Translations under genes and position numbers: made by a program | Part shown: positions 1-9,335 of the stretch, piece after piece | Position numbering within the stretch: the stretch's first letter is position 1 | How the letters are laid out: each line of letters starts with the position of its first letter | Origin: Treponema sp. | GTDB lineage: Bacteria > Spirochaetota > Spirochaetia > Treponematales > Breznakiellaceae | NCBI GenBank assembly: GCA_031288005.1 | Contig: JAITSE010000036.1 | Span: forward strand, 1 to 9,335 | Reading direction: 5' to 3' | DNA length: 9,335 nt | Notes under the pieces: generated by a model | What the model was told of the DNA's origin: nothing | The model's input: only the letters and a program-made list of their open reading frames with translations | Database searches by the model: none

Positions 1-30
1 TTACTAGTTGAAAGGGACTCCCACACCCTT

Positions 31-64
31 GCGACCGCTATGAGACCTTCGGTCTCACGGTCGC
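31..64. repeat. Composite triloop hairpin (GCGACCG / CGGTCGC with inner TGAGACC-ttc-GGTCTCA)
   Basis: The outer arms are 31-37 and 58-64. The inner arms are 41-47 and 51-57 around a 3-nt loop (ttc), with a 3-nt bulge (cta) on the left side, giving 14 base pairs in total. The equivalent hairpin at 1785-1818 keeps the fold with a different inner stem. There is no T-tract on either side, so a standard intrinsic terminator is not supported. Confidence 0.85.
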
Positions 65-66
65 TT

Positions 67-114
67 GGAGTTTTGCGGCCCTACAGTCCGCGAGACCGCA
101 GGTCTCAAAACTCC
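67..114. repeat. Hairpin GGAGTTTTG / CAAAACTCC containing an inserted mini-palindrome
   Basis: The outer arms are 67-75 and 106-114. The inner 15-nt perfect palindrome GAGACC-gca-GGTCTC sits at 92-106. In the inverted copy (1749-1781) this 15-mer is absent and the 12-bp stem GGAGTTTTGCGG / CCGCAAAACTCC is uninterrupted, so the left copy looks like the same hairpin with a mini-palindrome inserted into its right arm. Confidence 0.8.
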
Positions 115-204
115 CCGCACTGGCCTCCGGGCCGGTCCTCCAGGTCTGTCCCTCCGGGCGGGGTCTGTCCCCCGAGGCTTTCTCCCCGCACTGCTTCTTA
201 GGTC

Positions 205-1578: not shown

Positions 1579-1639
1579 CCTGCCTGGCGGCAGGACCGGG
1601 CTTTCCGCTTAAATCTTTTTTTGCCTGCGGCAAAAAAAG
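1579..1639. repeat. Two hairpins upstream of lysA
   Basis: First hairpin: CCTGCC-tggc-GGCAGG at 1579-1594. Second: an 11-bp stem at 1615-1639, CTTTTTTTGCC with loop tgc and GGCAAAAAAAG. The T-run lies inside the stem, not after it, so this is not a textbook terminator in either direction. A weaker triloop hairpin, GGCA-aac-TGCC, follows at 1663-1673. No gene is seen in 1579-2044; hairpins fill it. Confidence 0.75.
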
Positions 1640-1691
1640 GATACCGCTTCAATCCCTTGCGCGGCAAACTGCCAAGCAAGCTGAGACCTAA

Positions 1692-4945: not shown

Positions 4946-5000
4946 GAAACGCGGAAACATCGGAAACTCCGTTTCCGCGTTTCCGATGTTTCCGCGTTTC
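4946..5000. repeat. 22-bp inverted repeat built of iterated GGAAAC / GTTTCC units
   Basis: The arms 4946-4967 and 4979-5000 are perfectly complementary around an 11-nt spacer. Each arm repeats GGAAAC at 8-9 nt spacing (separated by gc or atc), and the spacer adds one more GTTTCC. It is therefore at once a long hairpin and a short-period repeat. It sits between the broken reading frame at 5047-5826 and the operon beginning at 4858. It could end minus-strand transcription, but no U-tract follows. Confidence 0.85.
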
Positions 5001-7905: not shown

Positions 7906-8781
7906 ATGGAAACGTCTCTGCCGGAAGGCCGGGCTTCGCGGATATTTGTTTTTTATGGTGATGCCCTGGCGGTTCCCACATCTCTGCTAAACGGAATTTC
8001 TCATGAAATTGGCGGCTTCTCTTTGTTCAAAGGCTTTGGCCGGGAGCAGCTTCCTGAAGAATGGACAGAAAGGGCAGCGGATTATTTTGAAATCCATGAA
8101 ACCTGGGGAGAATGCAGCATAGCGGGTTTGCTCCTTGATGCCGCCGTGTCCCTGCCCGAAGGATGGCAGACGGTCAACATACGGCATTATCTTCCATTTG
8201 CGGAACAATGCGTCTTTTCACCAGGCCGGGAGGACATAGCCCGCCTTTTCAGGGCCTGCCACGTTATGCATTGGCGCAAGGAATCTGCCTACTGCGGCGT
8301 CTGTGGCAGCCGTAACACGGACGCCCCCGACGAACTTGCCCGGCTTTGCCCGATTTGCGGGCGGCGGGAATACCCCCGGATTTCCCCGGCTGTCATTGTC
8401 CTGGTTACCAATGACCGGGACGAGGTTCTCCTGGCCCACAACAAAAAGTTCTCAGACGGCGTTTACAGCCTTATCGCGGGATTTAACGAAGCCGGGGAAA
8501 ATCTAGAAACTACGGCGGAACGGGAAGTCCTGGAGGAGGCGGGAATCGGAATAGACTGTCTGCGCTACGAAGCCTCACAGCCCTGGCCTTTTCCTAACTC
8601 CCTGATGATAGGCTTCACCGCCCGCCATAGCTGTGGAGAAATCCGCCCGGACGGTGAAGAAATAGACGATGCCCGCTGGTTCCGCCGGGATTTCCTGCCG
8701 GATCTGCCCAGTCCCGGCTCAATGGCCCGGTATCTCATCAACCGGTGGCTTTATGGAGCATCTCCGTGTGCCAAACAATGA
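7906..8781 (+). CDS. nudC: NAD+ diphosphatase / NAD-RNA decapping Nudix hydrolase NudC (291 aa)
   Basis: Hydrolyses NAD(H) to NMN(H) and AMP; family members also remove NAD caps from RNA 5' ends. The protein has an N-terminal domain (about 1-120), then a four-cysteine zinc ribbon: CGVC (Cys130, Cys133) and CPIC (Cys148, Cys151), followed by YPRISPAVIVLV. The Nudix box lies at 192-214, GFNEAGE through REVLEEAGI, with Arg206 and catalytic glutamates 207, 210 and 211 present. SQPWPFPNS (224-232) is the motif that marks the NudC/NADH pyrophosphatase subfamily. The C-terminus is slightly extended (GASPCAKQ). Length is normal for the family, though a bit longer than the E. coli protein. It stands alone, divergent from the lipoprotein gene. 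The start at 7906 is the first ATG before conserved sequence; a TATGAT box just upstream supports it, but there is no ribosome site. Confidence 0.92.
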   Translation: METSLPEGRASRIFVFYGDALAVPTSLLNGISHEIGGFSLFKGFGREQLPEEWTERAADYFEIHETWGECSIAGLLLDAAVSLPEGWQTVNIRHYLPFAEQCVFSPGREDIARLFRACHVMHWRKESAYCGVCGSRNTDAPDELARLCPICGRREYPRISPAVIVLVTNDRDEVLLAHNKKFSDGVYSLIAGFNEAGENLETTAEREVLEEAGIGIDCLRYEASQPWPFPNSLMIGFTARHSCGEIRPDGEEIDDARWFRRDFLPDLPSPGSMARYLINRWLYGASPCAKQ

Positions 8782-8907: not shown

Positions 8908-8983
8908 GGGCCATCGAGGACTTGAACCTCGGACCAAGAGACTCATAATCTCTTGGTCCGAGGTTCAAGTCCTCGATGGCCCA
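8908..8983 (+). other. tRNA-Ile2(CAU)-derived perfect palindrome, probable attachment site
   Basis: The arms 8908-8941 and 8949-8982 are perfect 34-nt reverse complements around the 7-nt loop CTCATAA. The right half reads as a tRNA 3' half: anticodon loop CTCATAA (anticodon CAT), anticodon-stem strand TCTCT, TGGTC, T-stem CGAGG, T-loop TTCAAGT, CCTCG, acceptor strand ATGGCCC, discriminator A. It resembles the 3' half of tRNA-Ile2, whose CAU anticodon is modified to lysidine. The left half is not a D-arm half but the inverse copy: GGGCCAT, then CGAGG-ACTTGAA-CCTCG. Positions 8-9, the D-loop GG and the D-stem consensus are missing and no CCA is encoded, so a working tRNA is unlikely. With a likely integrase gene 120 bp away, an att site is the best reading. 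Confidence 0.8.
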
Positions 8984-8988
8984 AAGCT

Positions 8989-9011
8989 AATTCCTTACTA
9001 TATAAGGAATT
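8989..9011. repeat. 9-bp AT-rich hairpin AATTCCTTA-ctata-TAAGGAATT
   Basis: Perfect 9-bp arms with a 5-nt loop, 6 nt after the tRNA-like palindrome. It is too AT-rich and lacks a T-run, so a terminator is doubtful; it may be a recombinase-associated site. Confidence 0.5.
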
Positions 9012-9051
9012 ACTAAACGACTTCCTTCTAATTTTCTCAAGATTGCCTGGC

Positions 9052-9073
9052 ATCGTGCACTTATCGTGCATTT
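9052..9073 (+). repeat. Tandem 11-bp repeat ATCGTGCA(C/T)TT
   Basis: Two head-to-tail copies (9052-9062 and 9063-9073) differing at one base, each containing GTGCA. They lie about 30 bp upstream of the likely integrase gene, where arm-type integrase sites or an operator would be expected. No promoter is clear. Confidence 0.6.
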
Positions 9074-9102: not shown

Positions 9103-9335
9103 ATGCCCAGGCTTCAAAAGCCGTTTACCGCCCTCAGCCGGCGGGATTCTAAGACCTTCCAATTAACCATAAATCCGTCTTGCGGCCTCCCGGACAAGAT
9201 ATGCCGGGAGTGGCGCCGGAAAAGTTTCCAGAGCCTGCCGGATGAACTGTCTATGTACCGGTATCCCAAAACGAAAGCCGCCGCGGAGTCAGGCGCCCTG
9301 GCCCTTATTCAATACTTAAAGAAACAACTGGAGGA
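9103..9335 (+). CDS. N-terminus of a probable tyrosine recombinase/integrase (partial)
   Basis: The reading frame is open to the window edge; 77 complete codons are visible. It begins MPRLQKPFTALSRRDSKTF and contains a basic beta-like stretch (FQLTINP), REWRRKSFQ, YRYPKTKAAAESGALALIQ and a helical end (YLKKQLEE). The layout (KPF start, short strands, then TKAAAE leading into a helix) resembles the arm-type DNA-binding head of phage and island integrases in treponemes; the catalytic R-H-R-Y part would lie beyond the window, so this is inference. GGAGG at 9090-9094 is 8 nt from the ATG at 9103. The out-of-frame ATG at 9098 is only 3 nt from GGAGG and soon meets a stop. The adjacent tRNA-derived palindrome supports an integrase. 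Confidence 0.6.
   Translation, partial: MPRLQKPFTALSRRDSKTFQLTINPSCGLPDKICREWRRKSFQSLPDELSMYRYPKTKAAAESGALALIQYLKKQLE

What the first reader, a model, noticed from the sequence alone, without database searches (positions are those of the whole stretch)
8908..8983. Symmetrical 'mirror tRNA': 3' half of tRNA-Ile2 fused to its own reverse complement
A perfect 34-bp inverted repeat around the 7-nt anticodon loop CTCATAA makes a cloverleaf with two T-arm-like arms and no D-arm, on either strand. The right half matches tRNA-Ile2(CAU) 3'-half features. Many integrases that use tRNA genes cross over in the 7-bp anticodon loop, with the anticodon-stem strands as binding sites. A palindrome centred exactly on that 7-nt loop is what joining two right half-sites in inverted alignment would give. 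It could be an unusual att site, the scar of an aberrant inversion, or a folded single-strand recombination site.
Basis: partly seen in the sequence, partly recalled or inferred. Interest (0 to 1): 0.85.

Follow-up and report, generated by a model that had tools for sequence, protein, structure and literature searches.

The report
Palindromic dead tRNA beside phage integrase
Next to a phage-type integrase gene in a spirochaete, one half of a transfer-RNA gene appears to have been replaced by the mirror copy of its other half, most likely by a copying slip during DNA replication; it looks like a striking one-off mutation, or possibly a sequencing error, rather than a new kind of genetic element.

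Summary
8908-8941 and 8949-8982 form a perfect 34-bp inverted repeat around CTCATAA, the anticodon loop of tRNA-Ile2(CAU); the right arm is a normal tRNA 3' half. From 9103 starts a tyrosine integrase; named relatives are Treponema or Spirochaetaceae. Of nine close viral relatives, 6 have an intact tRNA in front of the integrase, one looks like attP, two are cut short, none is seen mirrored. Best explanation: a tRNA-Ile2 gene at attL, a natural quasi-palindrome, had its D-arm overwritten by the reverse complement of variable loop and T-arm through a template switch between acceptor and anticodon stems. It is hardly a functional tRNA (Rfam 25.7 bits; 55.7-74.6 for eight intact genes). An artefact stays possible: the contig ends 353 bp away, and three of the four other mirror tRNAs found in genome contigs are contig-tip fold-backs.

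The parts
8908..8941 (+). Left arm: acceptor 5' strand (GGGCCAT) followed by the reverse complement of T-arm, variable loop and anticodon 3' strand, where a D-arm half is expected
   Evidence: 100% complementary to the right arm; sequence
8942..8948 (+). Anticodon loop CTCATAA, in tRNA orientation relative to the right arm (CAU anticodon)
   Evidence: same loop in intact tRNA-Ile2 of L057
8949..8982 (+). Right arm: tRNA-Ile2(CAU) 3' half, positions 39-72; inferred to be element-borne
   Evidence: same place as the 3' half of intact tRNAs in integrase relatives
8983..8983 (+). Discriminator A73, present only on the right side
   Evidence: left neighbour 8907 is A, so T if read as a tRNA 3' end
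8988..9012 (+). TAATTCCTTA-CTATA-TAAGGAATTA inverted repeat just behind the tRNA; exact pattern also in the contigs of L058 and L063, near-identical in L060 and L064, other inverted repeats in the same place in L059 and L065
9055..9070 (+). GTGCACTTATCGTGCA motif between tRNA and integrase; present with 0-1 mismatches in 4 of 4 relatives' records and with 2 mismatches at the far end of one (G004); inferred arm-type integrase site
9103..9335 (+). Start of a tyrosine integrase gene, runs off the window (P0001, 77 aa read)
   Evidence: PF00589 in 119 of 120 listed relatives of the full-length protein
7906..8781 (+). NADH pyrophosphatase (NudC-like) gene, host side
   Evidence: PF00293, PF09297; best named relative Treponema sp., 78% over 95%

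Best explanation
A tRNA-Ile2(CAU) gene lies at the left attachment site (attL) of an integrated phage or similar element. Its integrase belongs to a family that sits behind tRNA genes and whose attP carries the anticodon loop and 3' half (seen in relatives). A tRNA gene is a natural quasi-palindrome, held by the acceptor stem (7 bp) and the anticodon stem (5 bp, often extended by near-complementarity of the D-stem 3' strand and the variable loop). During DNA synthesis the growing strand folded back, copied the T-arm/variable side instead of the D-arm side, and returned at the other stem. This made the gene a perfect palindrome and overwrote the D-arm (inferred). The product is a dead tRNA gene that as RNA would be a 34-bp hairpin. 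Any effect on integrase binding is incidental.
For: (1) The arms end exactly at acceptor pair 1-72, and A73 is only on the right; a 3'-3' join or a simple fold-back would run on, as in L006 (38) and L002, L010, L011 (56 or more). (2) Relatives hold an intact tRNA in this very place: 6 of 9 close viral relatives by ARAGORN and by Rfam at 56.8-74.2 bits; 1 is attP-like, 1 is cut inside the tRNA, 1 has no upstream sequence. The six pair at 9-14 of 34 mirrored positions, against 34 of 34 in the window. (3) Ordinary tRNAs are quasi-palindromes: of the 10 positions next to the loop 9 (L057 Ile2), 8 (Lys), 7 (Ala) and 6 (Gln) pair, G-T counted. (4) If the lost 5' half was ordinary, both switch points share only about 5-7 nt, too little for a k-mer assembler but enough for a polymerase (reasoning). 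(5) The tRNA model gives 25.7 (+) and 29.2 (-) bits against 55.7-74.6 for eight intact tRNAs. (6) Template-switch patterns in rRNA genes, bacteria included, are described in PMC8794818 (abstract and passages).
Against: The ancestral 5' half is not known: no genome is held and no orthologous locus was found (viral contigs only). AUA codons are in use (40 of 2100 codons in five ORFs), so losing tRNA-Ile2 should be lethal unless another copy exists. PMC8794818 itself says that structure-breaking template switches are rarely fixed. It is a single case. No promoter-like site on the + strand lies between 8780 and the left arm, so 'upstream flank' rests mainly on the missing A73.
Confidence: 0.52

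Rival explanations
1. Laboratory or assembly artefact: a chimeric molecule made by fold-back copying at the tRNA, or a wrong join near the contig end, took the place of the real sequence.
For: The palindrome lies 353 bp from the end of the contig (the window's own proteins are listed on a contig of 9335 bases). Among four mirror tRNAs found by one pattern in genome contigs, three (L002, L010, L011) are contig-tip palindromes that run to the first base of the contig with 0-1 mismatches outside the loop. Library artefacts at inverted repeats are documented for human DNA (PMC10908179, abstract). A dead essential tRNA is easier to accept as an artefact.
Against: A simple fold-back gives the same flank on both sides and arms that run on beyond the tRNA, as in the three tip cases; here the flanks are unrelated and the arms stop at the acceptor stem, so a second switch is needed.
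Confidence: 0.28
2. Inverted site-specific recombination: the integrase joined the host's tRNA 3' half to the element's 3' half, leaving a 3'-3' mirror.
For: Integrase beside it, and identity beginning at the anticodon loop in relatives. L006, a tRNA-Ala(GGC) mirror inside a MAG contig between mobile-element genes and host genes, has the form that such a join would give: its arms run 4 nt past position 72.
Against: In the window the left arm lacks A73 and stops at 72. The 7-nt overlap read inverted (TTATGAG) matches CTCATAA at only 2 of 7 positions. attP-like L060 and attR-like L047 and L084 are not mirrored.
Confidence: 0.11
3. A mirror that is kept because it does something: a symmetric integrase core site, a folded single-strand site, or a stable hairpin RNA.
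For: No mismatch in 34 pairs although the D-arm side would be free to drift; strong hairpin on both strands.
Against: No mirror in the 7 of 9 integrase relatives where the site can be read in full. The pattern scan of 84,980 species genomes gave only one mirror tRNA inside a contig, L006, though it sees one spacing and T-loop type only. A recent event explains the perfect arms equally well.
Confidence: 0.05

Closest known systems
tRNA genes used as attachment sites by tyrosine integrases, anticodon-loop class ('A' sites of Islander, PMC4383910; passages seen)
   Same: Integrase gene just downstream; attP-like relative carries the loop and tRNA 3' half, with identity starting at the anticodon loop
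   Different: The attL tRNA is not intact: its 5' half is a reverse complement of the 3' half
Quasi-palindrome or template-switch mutations (PMC8794818; abstract and passages seen)
   Same: A stretch replaced by the reverse complement of its hairpin partner, bounded by pre-existing stems, giving a perfect palindrome with the loop unchanged
   Different: Here a whole tRNA arm is overwritten and the RNA destroyed; the ancestral sequence is inferred, not observed
tRNA gene fragments left by mobile elements (PMC9897764; passages seen)
   Same: Non-functional tRNA-like sequence at an element border that tRNA finders still call
   Different: Fragments there are partial copies; this is a full-length palindrome
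Library-preparation chimeras at inverted repeats (PMC10908179; abstract seen)
   Same: Inverted-repeat copying makes palindromic reads; comparable to contig-tip cases L002, L010, L011
   Different: Unrelated flanks, and arms that stop at the acceptor stem

Membership tests
Functional bacterial tRNA (RF00005) | D-arm and covariance-model score in the range of intact tRNAs | tested here: not met
   25.7 bits on + (cut-off 29), 29.2 on - in a permissive search; no tRNA listed for the whole window at the gathering threshold; eight intact tRNAs in L057 (two), L058, L059, L062-L065 score 55.7-74.6. ARAGORN does call it
Anticodon-loop tRNA attachment site of a tyrosine integrase | Integrase gene next to the site | tested here: met
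   P0001 at 9103 onward; relatives are full-length integrases
Anticodon-loop tRNA attachment site of a tyrosine integrase | Identity between attP and the target tRNA begins at the anticodon loop | tested here: met
   In relatives only: L060 against L058/L059, shared from CTCTGGA
Anticodon-loop tRNA attachment site of a tyrosine integrase | attL holds a restored, intact tRNA | tested here: not met
   5' half is the reverse complement of the 3' half; 6 of 9 relatives do have an intact tRNA
Anticodon-loop tRNA attachment site of a tyrosine integrase | Displaced 3' fragment at the far end of the element | not testable with these tools
   Window ends 233 bases into the integrase gene; no genome held
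Template-switch (quasi-palindrome) mutation | Reverse-complement copy bounded by pre-existing inverted repeats | tested here: inconclusive
   Arms end at the acceptor stem and the loop is unchanged, but the ancestral sequence is inferred
Template-switch (quasi-palindrome) mutation | Observed ancestor or sister with the unmutated sequence | not testable with these tools
Simple fold-back artefact | Same flank on both sides, palindrome running into flank or contig end | tested here: not met
   Pairing stops after 34 nt in the window; it runs to the contig end in L002, L010, L011

The most novel reading that the evidence does not exclude
The perfect mirror is a maintained, working site: a phage-linked attachment site whose two integrase half-sites were made identical by copying the element's tRNA half in inverted form, perhaps acting as a cruciform or single-strand hairpin substrate, with L006 in Bacteroidota as an independent second case.
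Probability: 0.06. Interest if true: 0.75.

Novelty: new member of a known kind. Interest (0 to 1): 0.35.

Why it matters
If the mutation is real, it is a clean example of how the cloverleaf's own symmetry can turn a tRNA gene into a perfect palindrome and erase the D-arm in one step. It also warns that a tRNA finder may call such a palindrome a tRNA on both strands, and that metagenome contigs can end in tRNA-centred fold-backs.

Tried and rejected
Inverted 3'-3' joining by the integrase: set aside for the window because A73 is missing on the left and the attP/attR-like ends seen in relatives are not mirrored. Mirrored attP in the element: rejected because integration would then leave an intact tRNA on the integrase side, and attP-like L060 is not mirrored (10 of 34 positions pair). 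Functional tRNA: rejected on Rfam score and folding.

Pattern scans for other mirrors: one viral stretch, L001, chance; 27 stretches in genome contigs, of which 4 are mirror tRNAs: L002, L006, L010, L011; the rest pair little beyond the T-arm letters or are other inverted repeats; spacing 31, four viral stretches, none mirrored. These patterns demand a T-loop on both sides and a fixed spacing, so other forms would be missed; spacing 31 was not tried in genome contigs. Searches that led nowhere: phages and plasmids by DNA and by protein (no match); NudC-like gene in viral contigs (no match); tRNA-Ile2 3' half in viral contigs (only unrelated L057); relatives of the L006 element protein (2 of 395 genomes, one of them itself, the other E 7.9e-4 with six stops). 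P0001 has no Pfam or PHROGs match. Treponema genomes could not be reached with the genome search, because no handle in that group was at hand.

Literature: searches. In their listings (capped at 10-15 titles each) I saw no paper on a mirror tRNA made by template switch or on a perfectly palindromic tRNA attachment site; only open-licence PMC papers are searched. Passages of PMC11144348 (Treponema prophages) say nothing on attL or tRNA targets. Williams 2002 (PMC100330) is not held.

Full report
Observation. The window holds a perfect 34-bp inverted repeat, 8908-8941 and 8949-8982, around the 7-nt loop CTCATAA. ARAGORN reads it as a tRNA on both strands. It is far beyond chance: the longest perfect arm with a loop of 3-12 nt in 60 dinucleotide shuffles of the window was 12. 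As RNA or DNA it folds to the full hairpin; the cloverleaf is much weaker (-28.4 against -71.8 kcal/mol). The right half is a proper tRNA-Ile2(CAU) 3' half followed by A at position 73.

Setting. To the left are chromosomal-type genes: a PLP-dependent decarboxylase, a MATE transporter, a radical SAM protein, a BspA-type LRR protein and a NudC-like NADH pyrophosphatase. The last has its best named relative in Treponema sp. (78% over 95% of the query, best 120 of 884 listed). To the right, 120 bp on, begins an open frame that runs off the window (P0001). It has no Pfam or PHROGs match by itself. Relatives of this N-terminus in viral contigs (4 loci) are full-length proteins of about 430 aa. A protein search with one of them found 383 proteins at E <= 1e-90; of the 120 listed, 119 carry PF00589, and the 4 with an organism name are Treponema or Spirochaetaceae. 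So the window is the edge of an integrated element in a Treponema-like spirochaete. That such spirochaetes are typical of termite guts is recalled; no call shows the window's source.

What the integrase normally does. Nine close viral relatives were found in two scans (8, plus L066 at 26% identity, left out; 8, of which only L099 is new). Upstream of the integrase, 6 of 9 have an intact tRNA: L058 and L059 Gln(CTG), L062 Lys(CTT), L063 Gly(TCC), L064 Ala(CGC), L065 Pro(GGG) (Rfam 56.8-74.2 bits). L060 has only the anticodon loop and 3' half of tRNA-Gln behind an unrelated sequence, and so looks like attP. L061 starts inside the tRNA 3' half. L099 has nothing upstream. Mirrored pairing about the loop is 9-14 of 34 positions in the six and 10 of 34 in L060, against 34 of 34 in the window. 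Identity between L060 and L058/L059 begins at the first base of the anticodon loop. The far end of G004, the record of L033/L061, carries an attR-like decayed tRNA-Ala 3' half behind a phage arm that does not look mirrored (by eye). Between tRNA and integrase the window has a TAATTCCTTA...TAAGGAATTA inverted repeat (8988-9012), exact in the contigs of L058 and L063, near-identical in L060 and L064, and replaced by other inverted repeats in L059 and L065. It also has GTGCACTTATCGTGCA (9055-9070), found with 0-1 mismatches in 4 of 4 records tested. The window is therefore an attL-like junction in which the expected intact tRNA is replaced by a mirror.

Which half is odd. The right half sits where relatives have the 3' half. 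If the left arm were a second tRNA 3' half joined in inverted form, it should bring A73; read that way it has T, and pairing stops at the acceptor pair 1-72. By contrast, L006, a 3'-3' type mirror of tRNA-Ala(GGC), pairs for 38 positions outside the loop, through A73. The contig-tip mirrors L002, L010 and L011 pair on to the first base of the contig with 0-1 mismatches. The simplest reading is that the left flank is the natural upstream flank, the acceptor 5' strand is natural, and only the D-arm part was overwritten. The loop orientation does not decide between these readings.

Mechanism. Intact tRNAs are quasi-palindromes about the anticodon loop: of the 10 positions next to the loop, 9 pair in L057 tRNA-Ile2, 8 in Lys, 7 in Ala and 6 in Gln, G-T counted, and the acceptor strands pair further out. 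A template switch that starts in the anticodon stem and returns in the acceptor stem (or the reverse) would copy the T-arm side into the D-arm side and give exactly this palindrome. Such events are inferred for rRNA hairpins, with the remark that structure-breaking ones are rarely fixed (PMC8794818, abstract and passages). Shown: the palindrome, its end points, the integrase setting, intact tRNAs in relatives. Inferred: the ancestral 5' half, the switch itself, and the loss of tRNA function, for which the Rfam scores speak (25.7 and 29.2 bits, against 55.7-74.6 for eight intact tRNAs).

Against this reading. AUA codons occur 40 times in 2100 codons of five ORFs, so a cell needs an intact tRNA-Ile2 somewhere; no genome is held to check. 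There is no independent second copy. No + strand promoter-like site lies between 8780 and the left arm. The contig ends 353 bp beyond the palindrome (contig length 9335). Fold-back artefacts at tRNAs do reach assemblies, as L002, L010 and L011 show (3 of the 4 mirror tRNAs among 27 stretches matched by one fixed-spacing pattern in 84,980 species genomes). Library chimeras at inverted repeats are documented for human DNA (PMC10908179, abstract). I keep somewhat more than one chance in four for an artefact.

L006. This contig of an Ichthyobacteriaceae MAG has a mirror of tRNA-Ala(GGC) inside the contig, between mobile-element genes (CHC2 primase, DUF5906, HTH_17) and host-type genes. Its identity was shown by tRNA-Ala(GGC) genes in order relatives (6 of 148 genomes matched the 3' half, counting G001 itself; ARAGORN calls Ala in the other five). 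One of them, G083, has a second match about 36.6 kb away, L084, that is attR-like and not mirrored (11 of 34). In G001 no other copy of an 18-nt core was found with up to 1 mismatch, but the MAG may be incomplete. L006 has the form that an inverted join, or a mirrored attR, would have, and deserves read-level checking.

Verdict. The sequence observation is right and striking. The likeliest account is a one-step template-switch mutation of a tRNA-Ile2 gene at attL, with an artefact as the main rival.

Noticed in passing
L006:3735-3815: Second mirror tRNA, tRNA-Ala(GGC), inside a MAG contig at the border of a mobile element; arms extend through position 73 and beyond, and no other copy of the 3' half core was found in the MAG.
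   Followed up: partly
L002, L010, L011 (first 190-280 bases): Public MAG contigs that start with tRNA-centred fold-back palindromes running to the first base, apparently assembly or library artefacts centred on the anticodon loop.
   Followed up: partly
window 19-123 and 1740-1830: Inverted repeats up to 48 nt, 84-90% complementary, about 1.6-1.7 kb apart, flanking the decarboxylase gene.
   Followed up: no
window 1590-1670, - strand: Match to Rfam Flavo-1 RNA (53.7 bits, E 1.1e-9) in a spirochaete-like contig; it is mostly a long hairpin.
   Followed up: no
window 4946-5000 and 1915-1957: Further perfect hairpins with arms of 22 and 19 nt.
   Followed up: no
L007, L015, L027, L028: Proteobacterial contigs share outer inverted arms GGGGTCGAACCG ... 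CGGTTCGA(C/G)CCC with different inner sequence; not called as tRNAs, nature unknown.
   Followed up: no
L069 and L070: Other viral contigs with tRNA-Arg and tRNA-Lys followed directly by the same TAATTCCTTA...TAAGGAATTA inverted repeat; the genes behind were not examined.
   Followed up: no
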